IMG/VR virus record: IMGVR_UViG_3300046534_001374
Span: 1 to 64,000 of that record
From: a virus
Strand: one strand, 5' to 3'
DNA length: 64,000 nt
Of the stretch, positions 911 through 48,400 are shown in pieces. A model generated the notes under the pieces. That model was not told the DNA's origin, made no database searches, and saw nothing but the letters and a program-made list of their open reading frames with translations. The first letter of the stretch is position 1, and each line of letters opens with the position of its first letter. The translations under genes were made by a program, and so were the position numbers.

Positions 911-1117
911 ATGAAATCTAAAGACTTCAAATGGTTTGAAACCCAAGGCAAAAAAGGAGAGCTATTCTCTAGTGCCAAAAATATCGAAGAAAAAAAGCAT
1001 CGTTTGAAGTGGCTCAGTGAAGGTTCTTTGGAATATCACTTGACAAAATTCCAGAGTGATCCACCACCATGCCAAAAGGAAATTAATCTATATGATGCGT
1101 TCGTAAAACAACTTTAA
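911..1117 (+). CDS. Small hypothetical protein (68 aa)
   Basis: A lysine-rich 68-residue protein that matches no family I know. It starts 9 bases after a sigma70-like -10 box, so its mRNA would have almost no leader. It ends tail to tail with the minus-strand gene, overlapping it by four bases. Probably an early gene. Confidence 0.6.
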   Translation: MKSKDFKWFETQGKKGELFSSAKNIEEKKHRLKWLSEGSLEYHLTKFQSDPPPCQKEINLYDAFVKQL

Positions 1118-1731
1118 TAGATCCAGTCATTGTCATCAGTGAAGTTAACCTTCAATGCTCTCAATGCTAATCTAATTTCTTCCAAACATTCAGTATCGGC
1201 TCCACCGGAAACACTAAGTTGTTTTCCGTGGAGTCGATCTTTTTGTAGATCGAACATTAGATCGGGAATATTAATCATGTCTTCGTTGTCTTGCAGGAAG
1301 TCAATAATTTCATCGCAGTTCTCATAACCAGTTTTGATCTCTTCGAAGTGCTCATCTTCCAATGAGCGGGAATCGTAAATTTCTCTCTCAAACATAAACT
1401 GGATAATGTCAACTAAACAGTTCTCAATCCCTTCATCCATACAAGCTCTAAAAAAGGCATAACCCTTCTCCCTGTATTCGAATTTGGAATCAAAGATTAT
1501 TTCTTCAGGGACACCTTCATCATATAACCAATTTTTGTGTTCGTCGGCAGAGGGAAATCCCAACTCTTCTCCATTTATATAAACGATAACTTCCTCGAAA
1601 GTATCGTTCAACCATTCGTAGTATGATACGATATCAAAAGGGAATTCATAAGCAGGTTGAACGTCAACACTGATATGTGTTTTGCCGCTCGACTCTGTTA
1701 ATAGTTTGAAATAGTCTTTGAAATTTCCCAT
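1114..1731 (-). CDS. Putative head-packaged protein with (L/I)xE leader
   Basis: The start is placed at MGNFKDYFKLLTE. The first 13 residues form a short amphipathic helix ending in L-T-E, as in T4 internal proteins, where the gp21 protease cuts after (L/I)-x-E. The remaining ~190 residues are acidic, rich in D, E and Y, and unrecognised. A terminator hairpin at 1749-1768 lies just upstream and separates it from the next gene. The leader is visible in the sequence; packaging is inferred by analogy with T4. Confidence 0.7.
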   Translation of the reverse strand: MGNFKDYFKLLTESSGKTHISVDVQPAYEFPFDIVSYYEWLNDTFEEVIVYINGEELGFPSADEHKNWLYDEGVPEEIIFDSKFEYREKGYAFFRACMDEGIENCLVDIIQFMFEREIYDSRSLEDEHFEEIKTGYENCDEIIDFLQDNEDMINIPDLMFDLQKDRLHGKQLSVSGGADTECLEEIRLALRALKVNFTDDNDWIY

Positions 1732-1743
1732 AACATTAATTAT

Positions 1744-1772
1744 AAAAAGGAGGCTCAAACGAGCCTCCTTTT
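1744..1772. terminator. Bidirectional intrinsic terminator
   Basis: GGAGGCTC and GAGCCTCC form an 8-bp stem with a 4-base loop, flanked by an A run on the left and a T run on the right. It can work on either strand. It ends the gene at 1797-2126 before the packaged-protein gene. Confidence 0.8.
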
Positions 1773-1796
1773 GCGTTAGGTTAATAGTGGTTTTAA

Positions 1797-2126
1797 TTAG
1801 GCTTTGAGAATCTTAACGATCTCAAAGATTGCAGAACCAGCCTTAAGAGCATGTTCTGCAACGTCAATATACTTTCCACCCGCAATCTCACCAACGATAC
1901 CCTTTACGGCATCGGCGATCTCAGCGATCTCAGCATCGTCAAGATCCTTGAGTTCTTCGGGGATAGATGCAATACCCTCAAGTGCGGGGGTAATGGCGGG
2001 GATGACTTGAATCAAAACTGCGAGATCAAGCGCATCTATTTTACCATCAGCATTAGCTTCGTTAAAAGCTTTTGCCAAAACCGCAATGAGACTGATCAAT
2101 TCTGTGGTATCTTTAATATCATTCAT
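1797..2126 (-). CDS. Small helical acidic protein, hypothetical
   Basis: The 109-residue protein is almost entirely predicted helix, rich in A, I, E and D. It contains an N-A-D-G-K-I-D-A-L-D stretch near residue 25 that resembles a calcium-binding loop. Such proteins occur next to tail genes in marine phages, but no function is known to me. It is divergent from the glycosyltransferase gene across a perfect 36-bp palindrome. Confidence 0.65.
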   Translation of the reverse strand: MNDIKDTTELISLIAVLAKAFNEANADGKIDALDLAVLIQVIPAITPALEGIASIPEELKDLDDAEIAEIADAVKGIVGEIAGGKYIDVAEHALKAGSAIFEIVKILKA

Positions 2127-2138
2127 ATCACATATAAT

Positions 2139-2194: not shown

Positions 2195-2800
2195 ATGAAA
2201 TATTATGTAGTTTCGGTCCCTCGCAACGGAAGACTTGAAAACATAGAAAAACAAGAAACTGTGCTGGGGGAATCTATCATTAGGATTAATTCGTTTGATA
2301 AAAAGTTGATCCCTGAAGGCACTCTCTCGCACGAGGAGGGGTATTGGGGTTGTCCGATTTCCCTCGGGGAGAAGTGCTGCTACCACGGACATTTGATGGC
2401 TCTTAAACAGATTGTGGACAGTGGGGATTCTTATGGGGTGGTATTTGAGGATGACTTTAATATTCTTGATGTAAATAAATTAAAGAATTGCCTAGAGAAA
2501 ATACCAAAAGAGCTTGACCACTTACAACTCCACCGAATCGAATTTGTGAGAGAATGGACTAAGGTAGACAGCGAGTATTACAATGAAGATTTTGATTTTT
2601 GTAATGAGACCTCGCTTCTTCAACCAGCATATGTGATCTCATCAAGCTTGGCTGCGTATATTCTTAAAGAAGAGGGTATTAACAAAATCCCATACGATCA
2701 CTTACATATCCAAATCAGCCGAGATACCAGCTTTAATTATTTTGAAGTTAAAGAGAGTGTTGTGGAAACAGTAAACTTAGCCAGTATTATCAATGAATAA
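2195..2800 (+). CDS. Glycosyltransferase family 25-like
   Basis: The start is set at MKYYVV, after a GATAAATA word. The 201-residue protein carries GT25 hallmarks: S-L-G-E-K-C-C-Y-H-G-H near residue 70, then V-V-F-E-D-D at about 95, the metal and sugar-nucleotide site. Family members transfer galactose or similar sugars to lipopolysaccharide or proteins. It overlaps the next gene by 8 bases, so the two are translationally linked. The target may be the host surface or a virion protein. Confidence 0.75.
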   Translation: MKYYVVSVPRNGRLENIEKQETVLGESIIRINSFDKKLIPEGTLSHEEGYWGCPISLGEKCCYHGHLMALKQIVDSGDSYGVVFEDDFNILDVNKLKNCLEKIPKELDHLQLHRIEFVREWTKVDSEYYNEDFDFCNETSLLQPAYVISSSLAAYILKEEGINKIPYDHLHIQISRDTSFNYFEVKESVVETVNLASIINE

Positions 2801-3374
2801 CAAAGAAGAATTATTGGATCTTATTCAGATAGGTGCTCATATCGGAGATGATCACGTTTCATCACTCATCTCTCGAAATCTGGTCAGTCGTTGTCTTCTG
2901 TTCGAACCGATTGGGAATCTATTCATATGTTGTGAAGGATTCTATAAAGATAACCCGAACATAAAAGTAGTCCAAAAAGCTATAGTTTGTGATGATACTA
3001 ATTCTTGCACGATGTTTTTGCCGATAGACTCAGAAATTAGCTGGAGCAACCAATTAGCTTCTATTTATGAAGAACATGCTGCAACATTCGGAATTACTGA
3101 AATTGAAAAACAGGTTGTAGACGCACTTGATGCTTCTCTACTACCCGACGCAAAATATCTTTATATTGATACGGAGGGTTATGACTATGATATCATAAGA
3201 AAATATCTATCGTCTAGGACATTTAGACCACAAGAAATTTACTTTGAACATGAACACATCAAGGAACCAAACTATCGCCAAATCATAGCACAGTTTGGTT
3301 ATACTGTAAAAAACATCGATCATTTAAATACACTAGCTGTTCGTGATGATATCACACATTCCATCTTTTCCTAA
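2793..3374 (+). CDS. FkbM-like SAM-dependent methyltransferase
   Basis: The 193-residue protein has a Rossmann-type start (D-L-I-Q-I-G-A-H-I-G-D), an L-F-E-P strand, N-I-K-V-V-Q-K-A-I, and the motif Y-I-D-T-E-G-Y-D that is characteristic of FkbM family methyltransferases (PF05050). These enzymes usually O-methylate sugars or small molecules. The overlap with the GT25 gene points to joint glycan modification. It ends tail to tail with a minus-strand glycosyltransferase, sharing 23 bases. Confidence 0.7.
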   Translation: MNNKEELLDLIQIGAHIGDDHVSSLISRNLVSRCLLFEPIGNLFICCEGFYKDNPNIKVVQKAIVCDDTNSCTMFLPIDSEISWSNQLASIYEEHAATFGITEIEKQVVDALDASLLPDAKYLYIDTEGYDYDIIRKYLSSRTFRPQEIYFEHEHIKEPNYRQIIAQFGYTVKNIDHLNTLAVRDDITHSIFS

Positions 3375-4074
3375 ATGGCTCTAGTTTAAATTCAAACGGT
3401 CCGGCAAAATGGTTAAAAATACCCAAGCTACAATTGCCCTCGGAAAGAACTATATTATTCCACATAGTCCCTAGCTCTCGATACCGCATACCCTCTTCTA
3501 GAACTGATTTGATTACTAGAAAATTGAAATATCCTTGCTCATAATTGGAGCCTCGTAGTGATTCTATCGGGGGATGTTGAATTGCAACACCCAAGATTGC
3601 TTTGGCGGCTTTTTTATTTAAAACTAATACTCCAGAATTAAAGTAACTATAAAAATGCGGACACTCCAGTTGGTAATGTTTAAGTATTTCACCCCTAAAA
3701 TCCTGAATCCACTCTTCATGCATACAAAAATCACCAACAGCCATGAAGTCTACATTTTGTTTGTGGAACCAGTAGAATATATTGTTCTCGTTTGGTAGGC
3801 CGTCTATTGAAGACTTCTTATTGAAGAAAATGTCAGTATCAATATATAAGAGATTGTCATACTCTTCAAATTGCGGGTCTTCCACAAAGCTTTTAATTAA
3901 AGAAATCTTCTTCCAGTGTGGGGTAGCCCCCTCAAATTGAATTTCTTCGGTCTTATACTCTATAATCGGGCGGCCTATTTGTTGGGCATATTGTTTAATA
4001 GAATTAATACAAGTTCGCCTAAATTTAGTTTGGGTCGGATAATCGTTAATTATCGCTATAACATCTTTACTCAT
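3352..4074 (-). CDS. Glycosyltransferase with DxD motif
   Basis: The 240-residue protein contains L-L-Y-I-D-T-D-I-F-F near residue 75, the DxD metal site of GT-A glycosyltransferases, and later Y-F-N-S-G-V-L-V-L-N, which resembles the acceptor region of GT8 and GT34-type enzymes. It is the second gene of a minus pair with the gene at 4076, one base apart. The sugar and acceptor cannot be told from sequence. Confidence 0.65.
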   Translation of the reverse strand: MSKDVIAIINDYPTQTKFRRTCINSIKQYAQQIGRPIIEYKTEEIQFEGATPHWKKISLIKSFVEDPQFEEYDNLLYIDTDIFFNKKSSIDGLPNENNIFYWFHKQNVDFMAVGDFCMHEEWIQDFRGEILKHYQLECPHFYSYFNSGVLVLNKKAAKAILGVAIQHPPIESLRGSNYEQGYFNFLVIKSVLEEGMRYRELGTMWNNIVLSEGNCSLGIFNHFAGPFEFKLEPFRKRWNV

Positions 4075-4075
4075 T

Positions 4076-4747
4076 TTAATCTTTTTCGTTAGTATTATTT
4101 AAGTCTTGTTCAATAATAAAGTTCAATAAATCCAACTTATGTTCAAACGGAACCCCCGCAGCATGAATCGCATATGGGTCACTACAAAGATCTTCAATAT
4201 CAATAGACCCTCCAATCATAGTATTGTAGTTTACTGGCAATAGTTTTAACTCTACGCCTGAGTTCTGAACTGCATAGTTAACCGCCGATTGCTCTCCAAA
4301 GTCCGAGAAGTCTTCAGGTTTGGTTCTTAAATGCGTCAGAGCATCGTCGAAGATCTTTACATGACGGTGGTTGAAAATCATAAAGCCTCCGTTGAAATAT
4401 TTGGAGGTATCCATGCCCAATCTTTTACAATCTTTATATGAAAAGGCATCGGGCCAAGTTTCGCAATTATACGGATGGCCGTCACAATCTTTAACTGCGA
4501 TAAATTCCTCTTTATCATCGAAAGGCGAGAGATCAACATCTTTCATAAACCAAAGGTCTGCATCGAAAAATACAACCGACCCTTTTTTAGGAATACTAGA
4601 TAATTGTAACTTGGCAGTATAATTTCGTTCGTGTGTTGTATGCAACACAAAACAGTTGAGACCTGTGTGCCGCATAAATCGTTTTCGCGCTTCTTCCGCA
4701 ATCCCCGAATTACTATAATTGGGTGAAGAGATGGTGATACCTATCAT
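4076..4747 (-). CDS. GT8-like glycosyltransferase
   Basis: The 223-residue protein shows V-V-F-F-D-A-D-L-W-F at about residue 60 (DxD) and K-Y-F-N-G-G-F-M-I-F-N at about residue 117, the typical GT8-like pair of motifs. The C-terminus has I-H-A-A-G, the usual late histidine region. It is transcribed with the neighbouring DxD enzyme and faces the GT25/FkbM pair, giving four glycan genes in 2.5 kb beside tail genes. Confidence 0.7.
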   Translation of the reverse strand: MIGITISSPNYSNSGIAEEARKRFMRHTGLNCFVLHTTHERNYTAKLQLSSIPKKGSVVFFDADLWFMKDVDLSPFDDKEEFIAVKDCDGHPYNCETWPDAFSYKDCKRLGMDTSKYFNGGFMIFNHRHVKIFDDALTHLRTKPEDFSDFGEQSAVNYAVQNSGVELKLLPVNYNTMIGGSIDIEDLCSDPYAIHAAGVPFEHKLDLLNFIIEQDLNNTNEKD

Positions 4748-4783
4748 TGGTATTAATTACCACACAACCACCGCAAAGCAAGC

Positions 4784-5503
4784 TTAAATTCCTATATCAT
4801 CGTCAATTAATGGTAGGTATCCTTCATCATTAATGTAACAATTTTCCACGGGGTCGCAAACACTCCAATCAATCTCAAAACACTCCTCACAGGTTCTTTC
4901 TAATACAGCAGTGATGCTCTTCTCTGAAGGGTAGTCGTCATAATATCCAAAACAAAAACTATCGCGCCAGCCGCAAAGCTGTCCATTGACGAATACCTTA
5001 GAAGGATTGTTTAATATAACTACGCCCTCTTTGAAATCAAATGTTTCGTCTGTCGTGAAATAATGTCGCGGTAAACAATGCTGAAATGGTGTTTCTGGTA
5101 GATCCTCTACAGGCGGGGAAACCGTATTGTCTACAGATAGCTTGACTCTGATAGGGGGAGGGCAATTAGTGGTAACATAAACTTTAAAGTTCATACCGTC
5201 ATCGACAGAAGCAAATCCATCCTCGGGATACTCTTCAAATTTGATAGAGTCTGTAACGTATGGCTTTACTGCCACTACAATGCAGTCTAAGACCTCATTG
5301 GCATTTTCCTCACAAGTCCTAAGACAAGCTTTAAAAGTGCCGTAGGTGTCGTATGTGTGTGAAATAACACTACGGCTATCAACCATTGCCGTATTACCAT
5401 CCCCGAAATCTAGTAGAGTCTGTGGCGGATTATCACCGCTTATTTTAAAACAAAAAGAGTCTAACTTTGCGTATCCTATTTGATTGTCGATTCTGAGTGG
5501 CAT
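4784..5503 (-). CDS. Virion protein with PKD-like domain
   Basis: The 239-residue protein has a PKD-type signature near residue 30: L-D-F-G-D-G, followed about 20 residues later by H-T-Y-D-T-Y-G-T-F. This immunoglobulin-like fold is common in phage adhesins. The C-terminal half has many cysteines, including C-E-E-C. It lies last in a block with gp6 and the large protein at 5509, so it is probably a baseplate-attached or fibre component. Confidence 0.6.
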   Translation of the reverse strand: MPLRIDNQIGYAKLDSFCFKISGDNPPQTLLDFGDGNTAMVDSRSVISHTYDTYGTFKACLRTCEENANEVLDCIVVAVKPYVTDSIKFEEYPEDGFASVDDGMNFKVYVTTNCPPPIRVKLSVDNTVSPPVEDLPETPFQHCLPRHYFTTDETFDFKEGVVILNNPSKVFVNGQLCGWRDSFCFGYYDDYPSEKSITAVLERTCEECFEIDWSVCDPVENCYINDEGYLPLIDDDIGI

Positions 5504-5508
5504 ATTAT

Positions 5509-7278
5509 TTATGATGAGTATTCACGGAGATCTTTGATTTTCAAATCAGATTTCCAGTTTAGTTTATTTATAATATTGGTAACAGGAACATTTTGTTCCA
5601 CAACATCAAAAACCTCTTCACTGATTTTTAATTGATCTTCTGGGTCTTCAAACCCACTATTAATTAGGTTTACATTGAACCGAGAAGATTTAAATCCGGT
5701 GGGTCTAAACATATAGAATAGATCGATATCTTCTTTGAAAGAGACGGGGTATTTAGTGGGAAGCTCCATTTTGATTGGGCCCAATATTCTTTTCTTTTGT
5801 GAAAATGTATTAAATGATTTGGATAGAGCTAAATTATCAATAACGCCTTTAAAGAAAACCGGATCTTCGATACCTAGCTCTTCCTTCTTCGCTCTGAAGT
5901 TTCCACTGTCAGCACCAATCAAAGTAGGTCTGCTGTTTTCATCGTCGTAAAATATAACACCGGATTGTTCGAAAGAATCAACAACATTACCGTTTAAAAA
6001 TAATTTACCTTGTCCGTCCAGACCGTTATACAGAAACTTGAAATTATGTGTTCCTGTTAGAGAGGTTACATCGTGTGATAAGGTTCTATATTTCACATTA
6101 CCATCACAAGCATCCACAATAGCGACTCTAGCTACAATCCTAGAATCATTATTGTTTGCACAGTTAACACTGTAGGTTTTTTTGTGTCTGAATGAAGTAA
6201 AATCACCGTTTGCACAAAATCTTACATTCTCAAATGAAGTCTCGGGATATCTTTCAACATCCAACAAATTAGTCAACAAGATACAATCAATAATGTCGGC
6301 ATTGCCATTTAATTTCAGAGCATAGTTGGATTCTTCTAATACAACCCAAGTATATTCTTCATAACCATCTATAGTAAGTTTTCTGGTGAACGATATACTA
6401 ACTCCTTTTTTAGTATTATCGCATGGATCGGTAATACACGGTTTAATGTTATGAAATTCTTTGTTAAATATAACCCTACCCCGTTTATCCATTTTGATAA
6501 GCTTATTCCCTTGGTATACTATCCATATATCATCATTAACATCAATTCCGAAAGTATCCGTTTTAATACTGGCAAAGAAAAACCCATTACCATTCTTATA
6601 GATGGTATTTCCGAATAAGTTATAATGATTGTCTTCGCAATCTGTCAACATAGGCGTTCCTTTATTGGAGTAAAATGATTTTATCTCATCCTGACTAGTG
6701 ATTACAAAATTGGTATGGCCACTTTGACTTAATGCAATAGTAGAAACATATGAACCTGCATTTGTATATTTTAATATGTGATCTTCCGCCAAATTTAGGA
6801 AATATACGTCACCAACGCTATCGATGTTAATGGTAATGATTTCAAACAACTCCCCAACAAGGGTAAATTCTTTTACAAGAATATTATTAGTATCGAATCT
6901 AAAAACTTTATTGTTACCTTGATCGTAATAATACTTGTTACCGAAATGGTCGATGGTTTGTGTCGAAATTTCTATAGGATTTTCTTGATCGGGAAAATCG
7001 CGTTGGGATAATAGTTTACCTTCTTGGTTGAAAAAGGATAAATGGTTATTCCCGCAATCGGTAATCGTCAGGTTCGAAATTTCTTCAAGTCCGTTTTGGT
7101 AGAACACCCCGTAACCTTGGTTATCGAAATTTCCAACAATCTGCGAACTATTGGGCTGATTCCAACTACGAAGTGTCAAATCGAAGTCAATACAAATCGT
7201 ATTGGTTGGATAGAAATCTTCATTGACAGGAAATCTAAGATAATTTCTTCCAGAAAGAATTAGGGTATTATTAGACAT
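5509..7278 (-). CDS. Large virion protein, lectin and propeller-like
   Basis: The 589-residue protein begins like a concanavalin-type (LamG) domain and has a second one at about 430-510 (H-N-F-K-F-L-Y-N-G-L-D ... V-F-F-K-G-V-I-D-N-L-A-L-S). Between them are repeated short beta units such as F-D-T-N and D-K-R-G-R, resembling an NHL-like propeller. The start ATG shares one base with the gp6 stop (TAATG), so translation is coupled. A glycan-binding baseplate or fibre protein is the likely role. Confidence 0.6.
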   Translation of the reverse strand: MSNNTLILSGRNYLRFPVNEDFYPTNTICIDFDLTLRSWNQPNSSQIVGNFDNQGYGVFYQNGLEEISNLTITDCGNNHLSFFNQEGKLLSQRDFPDQENPIEISTQTIDHFGNKYYYDQGNNKVFRFDTNNILVKEFTLVGELFEIITINIDSVGDVYFLNLAEDHILKYTNAGSYVSTIALSQSGHTNFVITSQDEIKSFYSNKGTPMLTDCEDNHYNLFGNTIYKNGNGFFFASIKTDTFGIDVNDDIWIVYQGNKLIKMDKRGRVIFNKEFHNIKPCITDPCDNTKKGVSISFTRKLTIDGYEEYTWVVLEESNYALKLNGNADIIDCILLTNLLDVERYPETSFENVRFCANGDFTSFRHKKTYSVNCANNNDSRIVARVAIVDACDGNVKYRTLSHDVTSLTGTHNFKFLYNGLDGQGKLFLNGNVVDSFEQSGVIFYDDENSRPTLIGADSGNFRAKKEELGIEDPVFFKGVIDNLALSKSFNTFSQKKRILGPIKMELPTKYPVSFKEDIDLFYMFRPTGFKSSRFNVNLINSGFEDPEDQLKISEEVFDVVEQNVPVTNIINKLNWKSDLKIKDLREYSS

Positions 7279-8990
7279 TATTTAAAATTGATTTGATTAA
7301 GAATATCGTCCTTTACAAATCGAGGAACGAATATACCGGTAAATACATTGGTTGGCGGGGCGCTAGAGATCCTTTCGGGGTATGACGGATTCCATTCATA
7401 CAAACTTAATCCAGAATTTACAATATCGCCATTATATGTTTCGATTCCTCGAACTCCGTCTATGGAAAGTAATTTACTATTAATTTGCGAAACGTCTATT
7501 GTCTGGTTGAATAGTAACGACCTCTCCGCGAAGTATAATTCGATATTGTTGATAACTTCTAGTTTTAAATCTTCCTCACTTCTGTTTGTGTTTGGTGATT
7601 TGGTGATTGTTAGTCCACTACTCTGTAAGTCTGTGAAAAGGATAGAATCTATGGGTGTGGCAATACCAAAATTTATGATAATCGCATCCGATGGGATAAT
7701 CTCGGCAGATAGGGTTTTGGTTTTTTCCATCTTATCCACAATTAATTGCTTTTGGACGTTGGAAATATAATTTCCGTTTTTAGGAATTAGGAATAGGTAT
7801 ACGTTATTAAAATTTACAGAACTAGAGAAGTATATTTGATTAAACAATGCGCGATTTTCTTCGAAGGGTTTATCCAAGCCTAAGTTGGTATAATATTTAA
7901 TGTAGTTTTCAAGATACTCCTCATTTGAGAGTATTAACACATCCGAAACGAAGTGGGCGAAGTTATTCAAAACAAAACTCCGATAATCTTCTCCGGTGAC
8001 CAGCCTGTTTTGGGATTTAAACGTTGAAGGTGCATTTCTTCTGATCTCTGCAACAGTTTCAGGATCTGACTTGGGTGTGGATGTAGATGTGTTTGACCCA
8101 ACAAAAGAAGTCGCAAGATCGTTAAGGTATAGTGATTTGGTTGTATCCACTACATCCAAAAGAATAGAATTGAAACGGGTGGTGTTCAATCTACCTAAAG
8201 GTTCCGATTCGACCGCCCCCAACGCAATAACATCAATATCATTGTTTACCGAAAGATAATAAATCGCAATTTCGGAATTGGCTGGGGGGCTATAACCGTT
8301 AATACCATCGCCGAATGTTATATCATAAGAGCCTCTGTCGTTATAACGAGATTCGAAAGACTTATCACTACCACTAGAAAGGAATAGGCTATCAACCTGC
8401 TCAAATTCTTCCCATTGACCACTAGGTTCTTTAATATAGACATCGACACTATTATGATCGATTTTGTTGTCTCCACGAAAAATAGCATATTTCTGATTCT
8501 TTTCACCAGTAGCGGGAATTATAGGATATTCGACATAAGATCCGCCTCGAAATATTTGATCCTCAAACACCGTAGATTCGTGGGCGAACTCGTTAGTGAA
8601 CGTTAGGTCTCTATCCGTAGAGAACCGCCCCGAAGACGTTTCTATGGAGCTGTAGCGAGGAATAGAGTATGTTATAAAGCTTAGTGTTCTAGATGTAGCA
8701 ATATCCAAGAACATTGAAGACGATTGGTGTCCCACCGGATTATAACCAAGCATTTTAGTTTGGTTAATTAGTGATTCGACGGAATTGGTCTTTGTAAATG
8801 AACTATTAGCCGCAGTCCTATTTAATTGGAACATCAACAGCGAAAAAACCGAAGAAACTGCTTCGGACAAAATAGTTGCAGAAGAACCCCTTTGGGTTAC
8901 ATCGGGAAACTCAGCACTTAATTTTTGTTTTATAAGCCCATCGATGGAGCCTATATTGAATCTCAAATAATCTTGTGGATCGTCAGCCAT
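7278..8990 (-). CDS. 6: Baseplate wedge protein, T4 gp6-like
   Basis: The 570-residue protein (T4 gp6 is 660) contains the baseplate J/gp6 signature at about 320-345: I-R-R-N-A-P-S-T-F-K-S-Q-N-R-L-V-T-G-E-D-Y. The N-terminus resembles gp6-type wedge proteins, and the C-terminal part has S-I-D-G-V-R-G-I-E. gp6 dimers form the inner ring of the baseplate and drive sheath contraction. It is the first gene of a three-gene block. Its start is preceded by an ATAATTAA stretch and not by a Shine-Dalgarno sequence. Confidence 0.85.
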   Translation of the reverse strand: MADDPQDYLRFNIGSIDGLIKQKLSAEFPDVTQRGSSATILSEAVSSVFSLLMFQLNRTAANSSFTKTNSVESLINQTKMLGYNPVGHQSSSMFLDIATSRTLSFITYSIPRYSSIETSSGRFSTDRDLTFTNEFAHESTVFEDQIFRGGSYVEYPIIPATGEKNQKYAIFRGDNKIDHNSVDVYIKEPSGQWEEFEQVDSLFLSSGSDKSFESRYNDRGSYDITFGDGINGYSPPANSEIAIYYLSVNNDIDVIALGAVESEPLGRLNTTRFNSILLDVVDTTKSLYLNDLATSFVGSNTSTSTPKSDPETVAEIRRNAPSTFKSQNRLVTGEDYRSFVLNNFAHFVSDVLILSNEEYLENYIKYYTNLGLDKPFEENRALFNQIYFSSSVNFNNVYLFLIPKNGNYISNVQKQLIVDKMEKTKTLSAEIIPSDAIIINFGIATPIDSILFTDLQSSGLTITKSPNTNRSEEDLKLEVINNIELYFAERSLLFNQTIDVSQINSKLLSIDGVRGIETYNGDIVNSGLSLYEWNPSYPERISSAPPTNVFTGIFVPRFVKDDILNQINFK

Positions 8991-9045
8991 AAAGTTAATT
9001 ATGGCTGACGTTTAAATTCACAAGAAATTTAATGGATTAGAACAA

Positions 9046-9150
9046 GACGTGGGAGGACGACGATCTACCGCCAGCTTAGTTTGTTTTATATTAGATCGCG
9101 TTTAGATTCCGAACGGAGTTCGGTTTAGAACGCGCCTCCACTTTGACGTT
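9046..9150 (+). ncRNA. Structured RNA repeat, copy 1
   Basis: About 105 bases recur at 9555-9660 with around 85% identity. Pairing can be seen: outer ACGTGG with CCAC...ACGT, AGG with CCT, CGCG with CGCG, and the end hairpin CCGAAC-GGA-GTTCGG flanked by two TTTAGA boxes. It ends 20 bases before the ATG at 9171. Orientation is inferred from this position. It could be a 5' leader element or a small RNA. Confidence 0.65.
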
Positions 9151-9170
9151 GTCTCAGAAATTAAAAATCT

Positions 9171-9416
9171 ATGTCACTAGAAACAAAAATAGCCGAATTT
9201 TCGGATCTCAAGGAGAGTATTAAAATTTCCAGAAAATCTTTAGGTGCTGCCCAAAAGTCAAAATACAATAACCTAAATCCCAAAGACTTGATGAAAGTAG
9301 TTAAAGCCATCAAATCTAATGAAAAGGAAATTATGGATTTTTATCGTGACTTGGTTTCTCTGGAGAACGAGATTCTTGATCTAATTGATTCTGAACAAGA
9401 TCAGAAAGAAGGTTAG
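9171..9416 (+). CDS. Small coiled-coil protein
   Basis: The 81-residue charged protein is predicted to be all helix with heptad-like spacing and is rich in K and E. It follows structured RNA copy 1 directly, and the next copy precedes a second small coiled-coil gene (9689). I recognise no family. No Shine-Dalgarno sequence is visible ahead of the ATG. Confidence 0.6.
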   Translation: MSLETKIAEFSDLKESIKISRKSLGAAQKSKYNNLNPKDLMKVVKAIKSNEKEIMDFYRDLVSLENEILDLIDSEQDQKEG

Positions 9417-9498
9417 TTCTCTTCAACATATTGTCACACAAATCAATACCTGCTTTTGCAGAAGATCTTATTTCTTTGATTATTGCTTCTTGGCTCAT
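9331..9498 (-). CDS. Possible small gene overlapping on the opposite strand
   Basis: A 55-codon frame begins MSQEAIIKEIRSSAKAG and ends inside the plus-strand gene, overlapping it by 86 bases. It is supported by a promoter (TTGACA, 16 bases, TAATTA) and an A/T-rich sequence before the ATG, as in its neighbours. The long overlap makes it doubtful. Confidence 0.35.
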   Translation of the reverse strand: MSQEAIIKEIRSSAKAGIDLCDNMLKRTNLLSDLVQNQLDQESRSPEKPSHDKNP

Positions 9499-9503
9499 AT
9501 TTT

Positions 9504-9531
9504 TAATTAGTGGTCACATCAAACTTGTCAA
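9504..9531 (-). promoter_or_regulatory. Sigma70-like promoter
   Basis: On the minus strand, TTGACA at 9526-9531 and TAATTA at 9504-9509 have a 16-base spacer. It points at the small minus frame starting at 9498. Confidence 0.45.
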
Positions 9532-9554
9532 CTAAAAACTTGAAGAGACAACAA

Positions 9555-9660
9555 GGCGTGGGAGAGCGACGATCTACCGCTAGCTTAGTTTATGTTTATG
9601 TATTATCGCGTTTAGATTCCGAACGGAGTTCGGTTTAGATCGCGCCTCCACATTGACGTT
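9555..9660 (+). ncRNA. Structured RNA repeat, copy 2
   Basis: This is the second copy of the element at 9046. The end hairpin with its two TTTAGA boxes is identical. The outer stem changes from ACGT/ACGT to GCGT/ACGT (A-T to G-T), so pairing is kept. It ends 28 bases before the small gene at 9689. Two linked copies, each ahead of a small coiled-coil gene, suggest a cis-acting leader or paired small RNAs. Confidence 0.65.
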
Positions 9661-9688
9661 CGCTAGGAAACCCCAACCAACTAAACTC

Positions 9689-9829
9689 ATGCCAGAAAAA
9701 CCAAAACTAAAGGAGCGCACTCTTCGTGAGAATCTCGCAATCGTTAAGAAGCAAATACAAGATTTAGAGCAAGAAGATTACACCCCTAAAGAGTGGCTTG
9801 AATTGAATCAAGAACGTAAGTCTCATTAA
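9689..9829 (+). CDS. Small coiled-coil protein (46 aa)
   Basis: The frame reads MPEKPKLKERTLRENLAIV and continues as a lysine- and glutamate-rich helix ending in QERKSH. It has the same setting as the gene at 9171, just after a copy of the structured RNA. It overlaps the minus gene at 9826 by four bases, tail to tail. Function unknown. Confidence 0.55.
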   Translation: MPEKPKLKERTLRENLAIVKKQIQDLEQEDYTPKEWLELNQERKSH

Positions 9830-13849: not shown

Positions 13850-14095
13850 TTAACGCTGTAGTGAATTGAAGCGACCAGCCTTATCCACCCAACATGCAAA
13901 TATTTCAGTGAGTGGAACATAAGGACTGAAGAAGTTCTTGTAGACTTCGTATGGTTCCTCGTCCTTATCGAAGGCTTCCGCGTGAGCAAGGCTTCTCCGA
14001 CCAGATCTGAGATCTGTTACCCACACCGCGAGGGGCAACCTACCCTCTTCGAGAGTGACTGTCTTGAACTCCGACCAATTGAATTTCTTTTTCAT
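13850..14095 (-). CDS. Hypothetical early protein (81 aa)
   Basis: A basic-acidic mix beginning MKKKFNWSEFKTVTL. No family is recognised. It is transcribed from the promoter embedded in the hairpin at 14100-14141, whose -10 box ends 9 bases before the ATG. Confidence 0.65.
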   Translation of the reverse strand: MKKKFNWSEFKTVTLEEGRLPLAVWVTDLRSGRRSLAHAEAFDKDEEPYEVYKNFFSPYVPLTEIFACWVDKAGRFNSLQR

Positions 14096-14403: not shown

Positions 14404-14832
14404 CTAATCAAGTAGCTTTAGATTTAGTTCTTTGAACCAGTTGCTGTCAGTAAATTTTTTAACTTTTTCTTTGGTCATATGCTTAACATCTTGGAACCTC
14501 ACATAAAACTTGGAGTTCAAATAAAAGTCAACACAATTTTCGTAACTCAAACCAAATTTTCTTCTCATTTCTCCATGCATCACCATTTCCTCGGTCCACA
14601 TGACGACTTCTCCATTTAGTATGTTGAAGATTCCTCTAATTGGAGGTAAGCCGTATTTAATATCGTGCTTCTCTTTATACATCTTTATAACGTATAAAAT
14701 TTCTTTAGATGTCGGGTTCTTAAAAATAGTTTGTGTGGCAGGAGTGGCATCAGCATTCCAACCCGATCTGTAATCCTCTATTACTTCTTCTGATAATATT
14801 TTATTGATAAGTTCTTCGAATTTTGTAACCAT
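14404..14832 (-). CDS. Putative head-packaged protein with (L/I)xE leader
   Basis: The N-terminus MVTKFEELINKILSE ends in L-S-E at residue 15, matching the leader shared by about ten proteins here. The mature part (127 residues) is basic and unrecognised. The upstream sequence is A/T-rich (GTAATTATAAAC) with no Shine-Dalgarno. Injection with the DNA is an inference from T4 internal proteins. Confidence 0.68.
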   Translation of the reverse strand: MVTKFEELINKILSEEVIEDYRSGWNADATPATQTIFKNPTSKEILYVIKMYKEKHDIKYGLPPIRGIFNILNGEVVMWTEEMVMHGEMRRKFGLSYENCVDFYLNSKFYVRFQDVKHMTKEKVKKFTDSNWFKELNLKLLD

Positions 14833-16184: not shown

Positions 16185-16742
16185 TCAAAGTCCGAAAGAA
16201 GTGGTCTTCTTCATATCCGCATCCGAATACACGATTTTCTCCACTTCAAAATCGGACTGTTCAAAATCTTTAAACATGTCAACATATTTCTTTCCTTTAC
16301 CTTTCTTAATATAGGCTATGGTGCAATGAGGATGAAAATCATCGTAATCATTTTCATATTCGAAATCTTTCCTCAGAGACTTATTAACATCTGTTAGAAA
16401 ACCTTCCTTCTTCATATCGATCTTCAAAACATCGTATTCATTTTCGAAAAGCGAAATGCCATCTAAAGAAAGATGCTCTGGGATATCGTATTCTTCGATA
16501 TGATTAATAATATCTTTGGGATCTGGATCATTAATGAATCCATATAGAAGAGTGACATGCGGTTCAGTCTCCAAACCAAAATCACCGTCTTTTATATAAA
16601 GATCGTCTTCTTCGATTTTATCCTGAAGTTGTTTTAGAACGCTGGGTTTAAAAAAAATCATGGCGCATCCTTTGGAAACGTTTTCTCTTTCTAACAAAAG
16701 TGTTTCGGTTAATAGGTCCAGAGCTTTATCAAATTCGGTCAT
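16185..16742 (-). CDS. 2H phosphoesterase with head-targeting leader
   Basis: The 185-residue protein has two H-x-T-type motifs, P-H-V-T-L-L-Y-G-F at about 62 and P-H-C-T-I-A-Y-I at about 139, the signature of 2H phosphoesterases (2'-5' RNA ligase/Acb1-like fold). It begins MTEFDKALDLLTETLLLE, with possible L-T-E and L-L-E cleavage sites at 13 and 18. T4 Acb1, a 2H enzyme, destroys cyclic-nucleotide signals of CBASS. A packaged 2H enzyme would act as soon as DNA enters. That role is inferred. Confidence 0.75.
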   Translation of the reverse strand: MTEFDKALDLLTETLLLERENVSKGCAMIFFKPSVLKQLQDKIEEDDLYIKDGDFGLETEPHVTLLYGFINDPDPKDIINHIEEYDIPEHLSLDGISLFENEYDVLKIDMKKEGFLTDVNKSLRKDFEYENDYDDFHPHCTIAYIKKGKGKKYVDMFKDFEQSDFEVEKIVYSDADMKKTTSFGL

Positions 16743-19093: not shown

Positions 19094-19288
19094 TTAATGA
19101 TATTCTATGATCTCGTCTTCGTGTAGATCGTAAATCTCAAGATCGGCATATTTTAGTTTTACGTGTTTCTTAAACGATTTTGATCCTTTGAGGTTTTCTA
19201 AAGTGTTGAAATCTGCTACAAAATTTTCCATCCCTCCTGCGGAGGTTTCTTCGTAAGGTAGGCTGAATAACCAGTAGCGTTTCTTCAT
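19094..19288 (-). CDS. KRYWLF-domain protein without leader
   Basis: The 64-residue protein begins MKKRYWLFSLPYEETSAGGM and continues with an F-N-T-L-E-N-L segment. The same pattern (K-R-Y-W-L-F, A-G-G-M, F-D-T-I-E-E-L, I-Y-D) forms the body of the protein at 21473, which carries an extra N-terminal leader. The pair shows that the leader is a separate module. The domain resembles a phage family of unknown function. TTGACA with a distant TATAAC (19 bases) lies upstream. Confidence 0.7.
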   Translation of the reverse strand: MKKRYWLFSLPYEETSAGGMENFVADFNTLENLKGSKSFKKHVKLKYADLEIYDLHEDEIIEYH

Positions 19289-19334
19289 GTCGTTATAGTA
19301 ACACCGTTTCTCAGGATGTCAATGTTTATTTTGG

Positions 19335-21472: not shown

Positions 21473-21718
21473 CTAAGCCCTCTTCACAACTTCCCCAACA
21501 TACGAATCATAGATATGGTAATCGTCTGAACCATCATATTCTTTCACACTACCCCAAAGTTCAGAACTTGTTAATTCTTCTATAGTATCAAATCTACCTT
21601 TAAGGTCATCCATACCACCCGCAGCCTCATAGTCATTAAACGCAAACAACCAGTATCGTTTTACGTTATTACTTCTTTCAGTTATCATATTATTATAATA
21701 TGTGTTGAATTTTCCCAT
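21473..21718 (-). CDS. Head-targeted KRYWLF-domain protein
   Basis: The 81-residue protein is a fusion of the leader MGKFNTYYNNMITE (cleavage after I-T-E, residue 14) with the K-R-Y-W-L-F domain found alone at 19094. It is the last of four leader-bearing genes on the minus strand. A CATAAGTA word sits just before the start. The comparison with the leaderless paralogue is the best internal evidence that the first ~14 residues are a detachable signal. Confidence 0.72.
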   Translation of the reverse strand: MGKFNTYYNNMITERSNNVKRYWLFAFNDYEAAGGMDDLKGRFDTIEELTSSELWGSVKEYDGSDDYHIYDSYVGEVVKRA

Positions 21719-21732: not shown

Positions 21733-22440
21733 TTAATTTGACACAAACTTAGGAACCGACCCATTGTAATTTGTGTCGATATTTACAACGTCATCGTCAT
21801 CACAAGGTCTTGGGTTGATCATGTATAAATTAGACTCTAATACTTCCACAGGTGATTCTGTGAAGAAGAACACTGCTCTATCGCAACGACCACAGGAAAA
21901 TTTATCATTCACCATGCGGCTAACCTTTGCGTCATCCGACAACTCATCAAACTCACCACCATATTTGGCATGAGCAGATTGTCTTGTTGCGTTATCGGCA
22001 AATTCAGGATTGTCGTAATTTGGTGTTCTGCTGCGAGATTTAATATACTCCTTAACTTTAAAGGGATTGTATGTAATTGGCTCGTATGGTCTCGAACGAA
22101 TCTCTTCGATGATCTCATCCATTGTTAGGTCGATATCATCAACCTTACCATATACTAGCGATTGCACACTTTTAGTATTCTTAGCGATAATTGTTTTCGT
22201 GGTATTTTGTGCAATATAAAATTTACAGTCATCCAGAATCAATCCTTTAGTTCTGAATTTATCGCCATCGGGTCTCACCAAAACCTTATTTCCTTTTTTG
22301 ACAGACCATTGCCCGTTATACTTTCCACCCTCAAGAACGTAGTGAACACCAACGATCTCATTTTCTAGATATTGTGTATCTGGCGAAAATTCTTGGAGTA
22401 ATGTCGATCCAATCGACTGTAAGGTTTTTTCGAAATTCAT
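21733..22440 (-). CDS. Putative head-packaged protein with (L/I)xE leader
   Basis: The 235-residue protein starts MNFEKTLQSIGSTLLQE, with L-Q-E at residue 17. The body has a beta-rich first half, a helical middle with basic residues (K-S-R-S-R-T), and a C-x-x-C (C-G-R-C) near residue 185. No family is recognised. It is three bases from the next leader-bearing gene, in one operon. Confidence 0.7.
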   Translation of the reverse strand: MNFEKTLQSIGSTLLQEFSPDTQYLENEIVGVHYVLEGGKYNGQWSVKKGNKVLVRPDGDKFRTKGLILDDCKFYIAQNTTKTIIAKNTKSVQSLVYGKVDDIDLTMDEIIEEIRSRPYEPITYNPFKVKEYIKSRSRTPNYDNPEFADNATRQSAHAKYGGEFDELSDDAKVSRMVNDKFSCGRCDRAVFFFTESPVEVLESNLYMINPRPCDDDDVVNIDTNYNGSVPKFVSN

Positions 22441-22442: not shown

Positions 22443-22712
22443 TTATCTAGGTTTAAATTGTCCTAAAAGCTCGCCAACTTCGAAAAGATTAGCACCTTTT
22501 CTACCTACTCTACGAACGTTCCAAACATTGTTTTCACTGTCCCTAACTGATTGGACCCCGTGAGCAGACTGGAATCTAACTCTTTCTCTTTCCGCTAAAG
22601 GTCTGACAACTCTTTTAGAAGGGTATTTGATTAGGTGTTCCCTCTCCCATGCATGGATAGATTCCTTTATGATGGTGTTTTTAATTTCTTCTAATTTGTT
22701 GTCGAAGCTCAT
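22443..22712 (-). CDS. Putative head-packaged basic protein
   Basis: The 89-residue protein starts MSFDNKLEEIKNTIIKE (I-K-E at residue 17). The rest is strongly basic (R-V-V-R-P-L-A-E-R-E-R-V-R-F), fitting a DNA-associated internal head protein. It lies in the operon with the genes at 21733 and 22724. Confidence 0.7.
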   Translation of the reverse strand: MSFDNKLEEIKNTIIKESIHAWEREHLIKYPSKRVVRPLAERERVRFQSAHGVQSVRDSENNVWNVRRVGRKGANLFEVGELLGQFKPR

Positions 22713-22723: not shown

Positions 22724-23110
22724 TTATTCTACTGTCATTAAACTGAAACTATAAGGTCTGATGCCACTAATCTCAAAATCCAATCCCAATTTATAATCCA
22801 ACTTATCAATAATTTCACCGATATCGTATCTCCATTCTTCCTTTGCGTTTTTTAAAAATTCATCATAGGAATATCTGGCATTTTTCCAACCTTCTCTTGT
22901 AGGTGTTTTTCTATTATAACCAACATTAATGGTTTGTCCGTGTGTCATGAAAACATTAATCTCATCATCATCCATATGATCCTGAACTAATGCGACTATA
23001 TCTCGTTCCATATCAGGAGTAATCTCACCTTTCTTTCTTAGTGAGGGTTCATCCCGATAGAAGGTATCTTCCGATAAAATTCCAGAAATGCATTGACCAA
23101 ATTTAGTCAT
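22724..23110 (-). CDS. Putative head-packaged protein with (L/I)xE leader
   Basis: The 128-residue protein starts MTKFGQCISGILSE (L-S-E at residue 14). The mature part is acidic-mixed and unrecognised. A CTAAATAAGTA word is found within 16 bases of the ATG, like a T4-type late promoter. It is first of the leader-bearing run. Confidence 0.7.
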   Translation of the reverse strand: MTKFGQCISGILSEDTFYRDEPSLRKKGEITPDMERDIVALVQDHMDDDEINVFMTHGQTINVGYNRKTPTREGWKNARYSYDEFLKNAKEEWRYDIGEIIDKLDYKLGLDFEISGIRPYSFSLMTVE

Positions 23111-28382: not shown

Positions 28383-28760
28383 TTAAGCTCGTTGCAAAAT
28401 CTCGATATTTTTGGCCCATTCATCAGGACGGTGCATACCCGCATTACCACCATACGAAGGTCCACTCTTATAGACATCAAAACTAATAATATCGCCAATA
28501 TCAGGGAATACGTCCCCCAATATTGGTAAATTACCCGTCAACCCTACGACAGAAATAAACCACCTATCTCTTGCCATTTGCATATCTTCAACCTTAACAC
28601 CTTCATAAGATGGTTCATCTCCAATAAATGATGATGGTTTGGCGCGTGAAACCTTTTTAAGTGGCGGAAAAGGTCCAATATCAAGTGACGGTCTTTGTGG
28701 TGGACCAGCTTCAGTAATATGCGTCGTTATCGTCGATAATAGTTTGTCGAATTGTTTCAT
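28383..28760 (-). CDS. Putative head-packaged protein with (L/I)xE leader
   Basis: The start is set at MKQFDKLLSTITTHITE (I-T-E at residue 17), followed by a proline-rich link. The 125-residue protein is otherwise unrecognised. Two overlapping TATAAGTA words lie immediately before the ATG. RNA element copy B is 32 bases upstream, so it may be part of the leader of read-through transcripts. Confidence 0.7.
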   Translation of the reverse strand: MKQFDKLLSTITTHITEAGPPQRPSLDIGPFPPLKKVSRAKPSSFIGDEPSYEGVKVEDMQMARDRWFISVVGLTGNLPILGDVFPDIGDIISFDVYKSGPSYGGNAGMHRPDEWAKNIEILQRA

Positions 28761-36311: not shown

Positions 36312-36893
36312 TTATTTTATAAATTTAATAAGACCTTTCTCCATTAACTCTTGGACTGTGGAAGTATCTTTCTTTTCATATACCGCAAACAACCAAGGCT
36401 TTTCGGTAATTGCCCGTTCTAAATCTGGGTCGTCATTATGTAATGATTGGATTTCGGGGGGTAGATCTCGAAACTCGGTCTTGGTGACATCGTTACGCTT
36501 CTTATAGTAATATTCCCACACTTTACTACTATCTTCTGTATTGGCACCACCAGTATGTCCATACATTAGAGTGGAAGAACCTATTTTATGTTTTTGGTAA
36601 GTTACCAGTTCCATTGCAATGTCGTATCCTAATGCGCCATAACCCTTACCCCTATAATTACCGTATGATCCTGTATGCCCATTCCAAAATCCATCAAATC
36701 TCGACTCCAGCCTCATAGAGAAAACTAAGTCTTTTTTTACTTTATTAAATATATCAAAATCCCACTGCTCCCTATTCGACGAATGTTGGTTCGCCATCCT
36801 AACGAAAATCCGAGTTTTTGGATCACTGTGTAATTCAGACACATCTGCCATACCTTCGGTTAAATCATGTAATAAAGTTTCAAAACGATCCAT
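36312..36893 (-). CDS. Head-targeted GNAT acetyltransferase-like protein
   Basis: The 193-residue protein starts MDRFETLLHDLTE (L-T-E at residue 13). The body has Y-R-G-K-G-Y-G-A-L-G-Y-D-I-A near residue 80, like the acetyl-CoA loop (R/Q-x-x-G-x-G/A) of GNAT enzymes, and K-V-W-E-Y-Y-Y-K-K-R near 125, the usual late helix. It would enter the cell with the DNA and modify a host target. It is flanked by 16-bp direct repeats, as if acquired as a unit. Confidence 0.65.
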   Translation of the reverse strand: MDRFETLLHDLTEGMADVSELHSDPKTRIFVRMANQHSSNREQWDFDIFNKVKKDLVFSMRLESRFDGFWNGHTGSYGNYRGKGYGALGYDIAMELVTYQKHKIGSSTLMYGHTGGANTEDSSKVWEYYYKKRNDVTKTEFRDLPPEIQSLHNDDPDLERAITEKPWLFAVYEKKDTSTVQELMEKGLIKFIK

Positions 36894-46701: not shown

Positions 46702-46779
46702 GTTTAATTTAAGTTAAAGTATACTTGTTAAGTTTTCAAGTTTTATTGTTTCTTTTATACGCCAACTATAATTAGAACT

Positions 46780-47232
46780 ATGAGTTCTAAGTTTGATGAT
46801 ATACACCAACACGCGATGAATCGCTATGCATTTGGCGGAGTTCAAGTTCGTGATTATGTGAAAATTAAAGATACTAATATTGACGGTCTCTCTGATGAGA
46901 TCAAAGCTGAGTTAAAAAAGGTTCAGTCTGATGATCTTAATATTAAGGTATTGGAAGTGGTCAAGTCAACACCGGAAGATGGAAAAAATACACAAGATGT
47001 TTTCGCCGCTGTTATCGGTCAAGAAATTGCGGGTGGTTTGTTTCCCACAAAATTTACGGTCCCTGTTAATAAGCTTGAGGTTGTTGGTTTTAATGTGCCT
47101 GAGAGTATCCCCGATAGCTGGAAGGCTGAAATGAAGGTAGACTTCGACGGAAAGCCCGAGAAAGCACCTGAAGTCGGAGGAGAGCAAGTGGTGAAAGGTA
47201 ATGAACCCACTCCCGAGATCAAACAACTCTAA
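46780..47232 (+). CDS. Hypothetical protein (150 aa)
   Basis: A protein starting MSSKFDDIHQHAMNRYAFGG, with an alpha-beta middle and a P/E/G-rich tail. It is alone on the plus strand between two minus blocks and is followed by a terminator. No family is recognised. Confidence 0.65.
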   Translation: MSSKFDDIHQHAMNRYAFGGVQVRDYVKIKDTNIDGLSDEIKAELKKVQSDDLNIKVLEVVKSTPEDGKNTQDVFAAVIGQEIAGGLFPTKFTVPVNKLEVVGFNVPESIPDSWKAEMKVDFDGKPEKAPEVGGEQVVKGNEPTPEIKQL

Positions 47233-47245
47233 TTTTTAGTAAGTC

Positions 47246-47285
47246 AAAAAAACCCTCTTTTAGTAAGTCTAAAAGAGGGTTTTTG
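47246..47285. terminator. Bidirectional intrinsic terminator
   Basis: AACCCTCTTTTAG and CTAAAAGAGGGTT form a 13-bp stem around TAAGT, with A and T runs on the two sides. It lies between convergent genes. Confidence 0.88.
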
Positions 47286-47287
47286 TT

Positions 47288-48400
47288 TTACGAAATACGA
47301 GAATTTACGTCATCAATTTCTCCTGATTTTACGGGTAGGTCCAAATGCTCTTTTGAGATATCATAACCACCATATGGATCAATTCCATCTTTCTGAAGAT
47401 TCTTCAGATACTCCCCGTATTCAACAACTGCATTTTGTCTCTTGTAAGTTGGCATAACAATAACTCGGCCATCTACTAAATTATATTGGATATATTTGTG
47501 AGATGCGGAGAACACTGCTTTAGCTGCTGCTAACTGAACCCAGTCATCCCACAATCTTTGTGATACTTCACTTTTCGTTGATTTTTCAATAGCCTTAAGG
47601 AAGTCTATATAACCCCCGATTATCTTTTTGCCCGAAGCTGTCAGATTGTCAGTCTTCTCACCATCCTTCTTAGAAAACGACGCAGACTTGAAACTAGAAC
47701 CATCTGGTTTGGATAGTATAATCGGAACCCCATAAACATCAGTATTGATATTGTCGATACATCCTAGTTTACCTGTTAGAAGCTGAACAGCAAAACCAGC
47801 CTTCACGGTGGACATACCCCTAACTGCGTAAACGATGTATTTATATAGTTCGTAGGAATCTTTATACAGGCCAGTCTCAAAGATTTGTTTGTAAAGTTCT
47901 TCCCTCTGTTCCCATAAAGCTATCAAGTTTTTGCTAGCCCCTCGGAACATCCACTGTTTAATAGATCTTTTTTTACCATCAATACCTACCAAATTGTCAA
48001 TCCTCAAAGGCTTTCCGTTGGTTTCCTTAATATAAGCCGCATATACGGGGTAAAGGTTTCTGAAGTCAACCCAAGACGACCCAACAGTTCCAGCAACAAG
48101 ACCCAGCACGAAAAACATATTGTCGGGGGATGACATCGCAAATTTGTTAATTTCTGGATTGTGCTTACAGAAAGAACTGGGTGTATCAATGATATCGCTT
48201 TGATTGATTATAATCGTGTTGTCTTCGTTCTGTTCCCCCTTTATCTTACTCGGAATCATAACAGAAACACCGTCAATTTTAGTTAACTCATACGAACCCT
48301 TTGCTTTATCGGGATCAAAGTTCTCCACCACTAGCCTAAATTCTTCCAGTTCGTCCACTGTTGAACCTAGACTTTCCATTAAAGTTGAAAACTTTCCCAT
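47288..48400 (-). CDS. Large protein, possible leader and HhH-like motif
   Basis: The 370-residue protein starts MGKFSTLMESLGSTVDELEE, close to the head-targeting leader (L-E-E at residue 20), though less regular. Around residue 195-215, G-M-S-T-V-K-A-G-F-A-V-Q-L-L-T-G-K-L-G-C-I-D resembles the helix-hairpin-helix and aspartate of base-excision glycosylases, but the match is loose. Function unknown. Confidence 0.5.
   Translation of the reverse strand: MGKFSTLMESLGSTVDELEEFRLVVENFDPDKAKGSYELTKIDGVSVMIPSKIKGEQNEDNTIIINQSDIIDTPSSFCKHNPEINKFAMSSPDNMFFVLGLVAGTVGSSWVDFRNLYPVYAAYIKETNGKPLRIDNLVGIDGKKRSIKQWMFRGASKNLIALWEQREELYKQIFETGLYKDSYELYKYIVYAVRGMSTVKAGFAVQLLTGKLGCIDNINTDVYGVPIILSKPDGSSFKSASFSKKDGEKTDNLTASGKKIIGGYIDFLKAIEKSTKSEVSQRLWDDWVQLAAAKAVFSASHKYIQYNLVDGRVIVMPTYKRQNAVVEYGEYLKNLQKDGIDPYGGYDISKEHLDLPVKSGEIDDVNSRIS

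What the first reader, a model, noticed from the sequence alone, without database searches (positions are those of the whole stretch)
1114..48400. Ten proteins share a T4-like cleavable head-targeting leader
Proteins starting at 1731, 14832, 16742, 21718, 22440, 22712, 23110, 28760, 36893 and less clearly 48400 (all minus strand) begin with a short amphipathic helix: Met, a Phe at residue 3-5, and (L/I)-x-E at residue 13-20. In T4, internal head proteins and Alt carry such a leader, which the gp21 protease removes after (L/I)-x-E. The bodies are unrelated, as expected of a detachable signal for injected cargo. Read together, the window encodes an injected effector set.
Basis: partly seen in the sequence, partly recalled or inferred. 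Interest (0 to 1): 0.9.

Follow-up and report, generated by a model that had tools for sequence, protein, structure and literature searches.

The report
Shared head-packaging leader on phage proteins
A T4-like virus of bacteria appears to put the same short, removable N-terminal tag on at least twelve otherwise unrelated proteins, probably to load them into its head and inject them with its DNA, and it keeps an untagged, early-expressed copy of one of them.

Summary
The window is part of an incomplete 139.6-kb record of a deep-branching T4-like myovirus. All ten N-termini are real ORF starts. The pattern is enriched (15 of 190 genes, about 3 expected; 0 of 3000 shuffles), and two further clear cases lie outside the window. 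Bodies are unrelated.

(1) A T4-late-promoter-like box, TAA[AGT]TA, about 11 nt before the start codon, marks 10/12 leader genes, 19/24 structural genes and 0/25 replication/metabolism genes. (2) The leader protein at 21718 has a leaderless paralog at 19288 behind an early sigma-70-like promoter. (3) Distant homologs of two bodies carry different short leaders ending in E in huge phages, or none. (4) Those phages encode T4-gp21-type proteases; one has about 91 leader genes. (5) The leaders end in (L/I)-(S/T)-E, like the predicted capsid-protein cleavage site of cyanophage relatives and T4.

Not shown: this phage's own protease (portal, capsid protein and protease are all missing from the record), cleavage, presence in virions, injection. 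Best reading: a variant, expanded T4 capsid-targeting-sequence cargo set (confidence 0.76).

The parts
1114..1731 (-). Leader protein MGNFKDYFKLLTE|SSG...; body with VDVQ and GGxDxECLE motifs (isochorismatase-like by motif only); late box at 1737-1742
14404..14832 (-). Leader protein MVTKFEELINKILSE|EVI...; body unknown; late box at 14838-14843
16185..16742 (-). Leader protein MTEFDKALDLLTE|TLL...; body a 2H phosphoesterase with two HxT motifs; variant late box TAACTA at 16748-16753
21473..21718 (-). Leader protein MGKFNTYYNNMITE|RSN...; body of PHROG 1411/17649/4811 type starting at about residue 14-21; late box at 21724-21729
21733..22440 (-). Leader protein MNFEKTLQSIGSTLLQE|FSP...; body similar to phrog_586 / mycobacteriophage L5 gp82; variant late box at 22444-22449
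22443..22712 (-). Leader protein MSFDNKLEEIKNTIIKE|SIH...; body unknown; late box at 22718-22723
22724..23110 (-). Leader protein MTKFGQCISGILSE|DTF...; body unknown; late box at 23117-23122
28383..28760 (-). Leader protein MKQFDKLLSTITTHITE|AGP...; body unknown; late box at 28768-28773
36312..36893 (-). Leader protein MDRFETLLHDLTE|GMA...; body unknown; late box at 36899-36904
47288..48400 (-). Leader protein (less clear site) MGKFSTLMESLGSTVDELEE...; body unknown; strong late box at 48406-48411
19094..19288 (-). Leaderless paralog (MKKRYWLF...) of the 21473-21718 body
   Evidence: phmmer E 8.5e-8; aligned
19295..19322 (-). Early sigma-70-like promoter of the leaderless paralog, TTGACA-16-TACTAT with TG before the second hexamer
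13850..14095 (-). Regex hit probably by chance (MKKKFNWSEFKTVTLEEG): no late box, early promoter; not counted as a member

Best explanation
The shared N-termini are a capsid-targeting propeptide. Leader genes are transcribed late by the phage's gp55-like sigma, each from its own TAA[AGT]TA box. The 13-17-residue amphipathic helix (Phe at about 4, hydrophobic residues at about 7/8 and 11) docks the new protein on the scaffolding core of the prohead. A T4-gp21-type prohead protease cuts after the (L/I)-x-E at the end of the helix, freeing the mature body inside the head. The bodies are ejected with the DNA and act in the first moments of infection, before early genes can be expressed; the 2H phosphoesterase could then destroy nucleotide alarm signals. 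Shown here: the shared leader, its enrichment, late-class control, unrelated bodies, a leaderless early paralog, and leader swapping between phages. Inferred: scaffold docking, cleavage, packaging, injection and effector roles.
For: Enrichment and amphipathicity. Late box on 10/12 leader genes, 19/24 structural, 0/25 early; leader vs early P = 2e-7; a weight matrix from structural genes alone puts all 12 leader genes above the 95% genome quantile. gp55-type late sigma encoded. Leaderless paralog 19288 with early promoter. 2H and 1114-type bodies carry different leaders in huge phages: YKQFIKE|S, YLEFMKE|S, MKYIRTYES, MKVIKFSDYLKES, with the T4 IPIII spacing YQEFIAE|A in the first two. Those phages have S77 proteases, one has 91 leader genes, three have protease-scaffolds with YSEY[LI]AE repeats. 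Capsid-protein junctions LSE|A, LTE|A in T4-like relatives.
Against: No protease, scaffold or capsid protein of this phage is available, so its cleavage rule is unknown. Residues after the proposed cut are diverse (S, E, T, R, F, S, D, A, G). The leaders are longer than T4's. Outside the window enrichment alone is not significant. Gene classes for the promoter test were set by hand. 'Late' does not by itself mean 'in the head'.
Confidence: 0.76

Rival explanations
1. The leader packages the proteins but is not cut, or is cut elsewhere: it is a docking helix that stays on, and (L/I)-x-E is only the end of an amphipathic helix.
For: Variable residue after E; the site of 48400 is unclear; no protease available to test.
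Against: [LI][ST]E near residue 11-17 in 7 genes against 0.37 expected; the same tripeptide type at capsid-protein junctions of T4-like relatives; relatives' leaders also end in E.
Confidence: 0.12
2. The helix is a late targeting or docking signal for something other than the head, such as tail, baseplate, membrane or a lysis complex.
For: Late control is shared with tail genes, the only structural genes seen here; the amphipathic helix is generic.
Against: One-site (L/I)-x-E ending, T4-CTS-like counterparts on the same bodies, and likeness of the relatives' leaders to protease-scaffold repeats point to the prohead.
Confidence: 0.09
3. The pattern is chance or compositional similarity of N-termini picked out by eye.
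For: The pattern is loose; about three hits are expected by chance, and two window hits (14095, 40944) probably are chance.
Against: 0/3000 shuffles; independent late-box association; the leaderless early paralog; leader swapping in other phages.
Confidence: 0.02

Closest known systems
T4 internal proteins IPI/IPII/IPIII and Alt with their capsid targeting sequence (CTS), cut by gp21
   Same: Short N-terminal propeptide with an aromatic at residue 4, further hydrophobic residues and (L/I)-x-E at its end; shared by unrelated bodies; late genes; T4-type phage. IPII and IPIII read MKTYQEFIAE|A (PMC9026906).
   Different: Leader 13-17 residues instead of 10, F4 instead of Y4 and no F7-I8-x-E10 spacing; at least 12 cargo genes scattered among early genes with individual late boxes; bodies not related to T4 IPs; protease not seen.
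T4-spaced leaders in cyanophages (MKxF..F[IL].E[AS]) beside the capsid gene
   Same: F4 and an E-ending short leader on unrelated small proteins.
   Different: Few genes, T4 spacing, located in the head cluster.
Short leaders of huge phages (LR745206, LR756502, LR756504, LR756501, LR756508)
   Same: Many unrelated bodies share a short leader ending in E; two bodies are shared with this phage; S77 protease encoded in four of them.
   Different: Other leader sequences (MKYLKxFES, MKHLKKYNES, MKLTERKLRNLVKEVLKES); up to about 10% of genes; not proven to be head cargo.
phiKZ-like ejection proteins (phiKZ, 201phi2-1, SPN3US) cut at (S/A)-x-E
   Same: Multi-protein head cargo processed by a gp21-type protease (PMC9026906).
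   Different: Different cleavage motif; no sequence link to this phage was looked for or found.

Membership tests
T4-type CTS-bearing internal head proteins | Short (10-19 residue) N-terminal propeptide shared by unrelated bodies | tested here: met
   13-17 residues; bodies unrelated
T4-type CTS-bearing internal head proteins | Targeting residues: aromatic at 4, hydrophobic at 7 | tested here: met
   Phe at 4 in 7 of 10 (3 or 5 in the others), hydrophobic at 7/8 in nearly all; exact T4 spacing not kept
T4-type CTS-bearing internal head proteins | (L/I)-x-E at the end of the leader | tested here: met
   9 of 10 clear, 48400 unclear
T4-type CTS-bearing internal head proteins | Late expression with virion genes | tested here: met
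   Late box in 10/12; matrix score above the 95% quantile in 12/12; expression itself not measured
T4-type CTS-bearing internal head proteins | gp21-type prohead protease in the same genome | tested here: inconclusive
   Not in the record, but portal and capsid protein are missing too
T4-type CTS-bearing internal head proteins | Cleavage after E, presence in the head, injection | not testable with these tools
   Needs virion proteomics
2H phosphoesterase superfamily (16185-16742) | Two HxT motifs and a superfamily match | tested here: met
   PF13563 E 3e-13; HVT and HCT conserved in alignment
Acb1 anti-CBASS family (16185-16742) | Match to PF23474 above its cut-off | tested here: not met
   15.9 bits against a 27-bit cut-off, 20 residues only

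The most novel reading that the evidence does not exclude
A phage-wide regulon of injected cargo: a modular leader plus a personal late box can be attached to any accessory gene, turning an early-expressed host-takeover protein into one delivered ready-made (21718 against 19288). In huge relatives the leaders copy the tandem YSEY[LI]AE repeats of the fused protease-scaffold, so the leader would work by scaffold mimicry, and tens of different proteins would be delivered this way, among them signal-degrading enzymes.
Probability: 0.4. Interest if true: 0.82.

Novelty: new variant of a known kind. Interest (0 to 1): 0.64.

Why it matters
Injected head proteins act before any phage gene is expressed and include anti-defence factors (T4 IPI against GmrSD; IPIII needed on E. 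coli strain ECOR17, PMC9391042). A leader that can be read from sequence, checked against a late box, gives a way to list such cargo in uncultured phages. In one 642-kb phage it flags about 91 candidates. The tagged/untagged paralog pair suggests how early genes become virion cargo, and the scaffold-repeat likeness gives a testable idea of how a capsid-targeting sequence works.

Tried and rejected
Protease, capsid protein and portal in this record and a sister contig: not found. Extending past the ends of the record: about 2.6 kb gained, no head genes. Close relatives by gp6, 36312-36893, terminase and 126196: only contigs of the same phage or remote ones. Capsid-protein scan: swamped by cyanophages, used only for junction motifs. 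AlphaFold of 36312-36893 and 16185-16742 without an alignment: pLDDT 34 and 33, not used. PDB sequence search: no usable match. Acb1 membership of the 2H protein: below cut-off. An isochorismatase-like assignment of 1114-1731 rests on VDVQ and GGxDxECLE motifs only; Pfam gives nothing. Homologs of 36312, 47288, 22724 and 126196 in huge phages: none; 14404 gave one weak partial match, not used. Regex hits 14095 and 40944 rejected as chance. A first gene-start picker gave wrong starts and was replaced.

Full report
WHERE IT IS. The window is bases 1-64000 of a 139,595-base virus record. Two sister contigs from other samples are essentially identical over the parts compared. Terminase (26-28% to cyanophages), gp18-type sheath, gp6 and gp25 wedge proteins, tail tube and head-tail adaptor, clamp loader, UvsX and a gp55-type late sigma make it a deep-branching T4-like myovirus. 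Portal, capsid protein and prohead protease are all absent from the record and from a contig that extends it by about 2.6 kb. The head module therefore most likely lies in the missing part, and absence of the protease says nothing.

THE OBSERVATION. All ten starts are real ORFs with the described features. A stricter form ending in [LI][ST]E gives 7 against 0.37. The pattern is hindsight-derived, and the rest of the record alone (3 of 94) would not be significant, so independent evidence was needed. Outside the window two good members appear, MSQFEDIFKKEVLEEES (125804, minus) and MQSFKLFFEHFRNSILEES (126196, plus), and one possible member (78639, plus). The N-termini are amphipathic and the bodies share nothing.

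INDEPENDENT EVIDENCE 1: LATE CONTROL. The box TAA[AGT]TA, mostly starting 11-12 nt before the start codon, precedes 19 of 24 structural genes and 0 of 25 replication/metabolism genes. It precedes 10 of 12 leader genes and 22 of 136 others; Fisher P = 2e-7 against early and 3e-6 against the rest. A weight matrix built only from structural genes puts all 12 leader genes, including the two with variant boxes, above the 95% genome quantile. T4 late promoters read TATAAATA and need gp55 (established knowledge), and a gp55-type sigma is encoded here. A second promoter class, TTGAC-N15-18-TAnnnT, mostly about 34-40 nt upstream, precedes 19 genes, only one of which also has the late box and none of which is one of the 12 leader genes. 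The regex hit 14095 has an early promoter. So leader genes sit among accessory and tRNA genes, several of them with early promoters, but are individually wired as late genes. Caveats: the gene classes were set by hand, some structural genes by position; the box could be a translation signal rather than a promoter.

INDEPENDENT EVIDENCE 2: THE SAME PROTEIN WITH AND WITHOUT LEADER. The leader protein at 21718-21473 (MGKFNTYYNNMITERSNNVKRYWLFAF...) has a paralog at 19288-19094 that begins MKKRYWLFSL..., a few residues after the proposed cut (phmmer E 8.5e-8). The leader copy has the late box; the leaderless copy has TTGACA-16-TACTAT ending 7 nt before its ATG.

INDEPENDENT EVIDENCE 3: LEADERS SWAP ON THE SAME BODIES. 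The 2H phosphoesterase body (16742; both HxT motifs) begins after the leader. Homologs in 635- and 642-kb phages carry MKLKKYKQFIKE|S and MIKKYLEFMKE|S; homologs in a 484-kb phage and in Maribacter phage Colly_1 start directly at the body. The 1114-1731 body has homologs with MKYIRTYES, MKYIKTYEN and MKVIKFSDYLKES leaders. T4 IPII and IPIII, read here from the T4 record, start MKTYQEFIAE|A. In IPIII residues 4 and 7 carry targeting and 8 and 10 processing (PMC9026906). YKQFIKE and YLEFMKE keep exactly that spacing; the present leaders keep F4 but are 3-7 residues longer.

INDEPENDENT EVIDENCE 4: THE MACHINERY IN RELATIVES. Four huge phages holding a 2H homolog contain a gp21-type (S77) protease. 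In LR756502 it lies between a T4-type portal and a gp23-type capsid protein. In three of them the protease is fused to a scaffold-like part with 11-12 copies of YSEY[LI]AE-like repeats, the same shape as the leaders; shuffles give 0.3. LR756502 has 91 leader genes among 868 ORFs where 2.4 are expected. Predicted capsid-protein junctions of cyanophage-type contigs read mostly L[S/G/Y/T]E|[A/S], the same tripeptide type as the present leaders. Cyanophages carry a few T4-spaced leaders beside the capsid gene, though they are not enriched overall.

HOW IT PROBABLY WORKS. Late transcription makes leader proteins with the head proteins. The helix docks them on the scaffold core, a gp21-type protease cuts after (L/I)-x-E, and the bodies stay in the head and leave with the DNA. 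Shown: leader, enrichment, late class, detachability, swapping. Inferred: docking, cutting, packaging, injection. The cargo may be anti-defence. The 2H enzyme is a candidate for destroying nucleotide signals, as proposed for head-packaged 2H domains (PMC9503650), but it does not reach the Acb1 cut-off.

KNOWN OR NEW. The principle is T4's: a review already suggests that the CTS lets T4-like phages load varied proteins (PMC9026906). New here are the variant leader, the size of the set in a lineage without any studied member, the promoter pairing, the tagged/untagged paralog pair, and the likeness between leaders and protease-scaffold repeats in huge phages. My literature searches found no description of these, but only open-licence papers were searched.

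Noticed in passing
whole record; e.g. upstream of 117805(+), 8990(-), 1731(-), 19288(-): Both promoter-like classes (late TAA[AGT]TA at about -11, early TTGACA...TAnnnT at about -34 to -38) sit so close to the start codon that most mRNAs would be nearly leaderless.
   Followed up: partly
LR756502 225272-227371; LR745206 (L043) 6547-8670; LR756504 (L044) 7343-9637 minus: Prohead protease fused to a scaffold-like part with 11-12 YSEY[LI]AE repeats, the shape of T4-type capsid-targeting leaders.
   Followed up: partly
LR756508 (L045) 2405-12784: Another leader family around the protease gene: MKLTERKLRNLVKEVLKES, MKIQEQKLRGIIKEEIKKIVNEQ and about ten more on unrelated bodies.
   Followed up: no
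window 9039-9173 and 9502-9671; record 111568-114406: A family of dispersed repeats of about 110-120 bp, 82-95% alike, in both parts of the genome.
   Followed up: no
record 122232-125517: The large terminase is split into two ORFs (122949-123581 and 123628-125517) next to an HNH endonuclease ORF (122232-122825), perhaps an intron or inserted endonuclease.
   Followed up: no
window 31009-32259, 14865-15758, 23960-24208: A WGR-PARP protein, an ADP-ribosylglycohydrolase and a DUF4326 protein, without leaders, suggest an NAD/ADP-ribose conflict module.
   Followed up: no
window 18291-40206: 28 predicted tRNA genes on the minus strand, interspersed with the leader genes.
   Followed up: no
L015:12207-12680 (beyond the 3' end of the record): A SWIM-type zinc-finger protein beginning MKFELLIESLELLCEKKRRR may be a further leader protein; its upstream box is imperfect.
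   Followed up: partly
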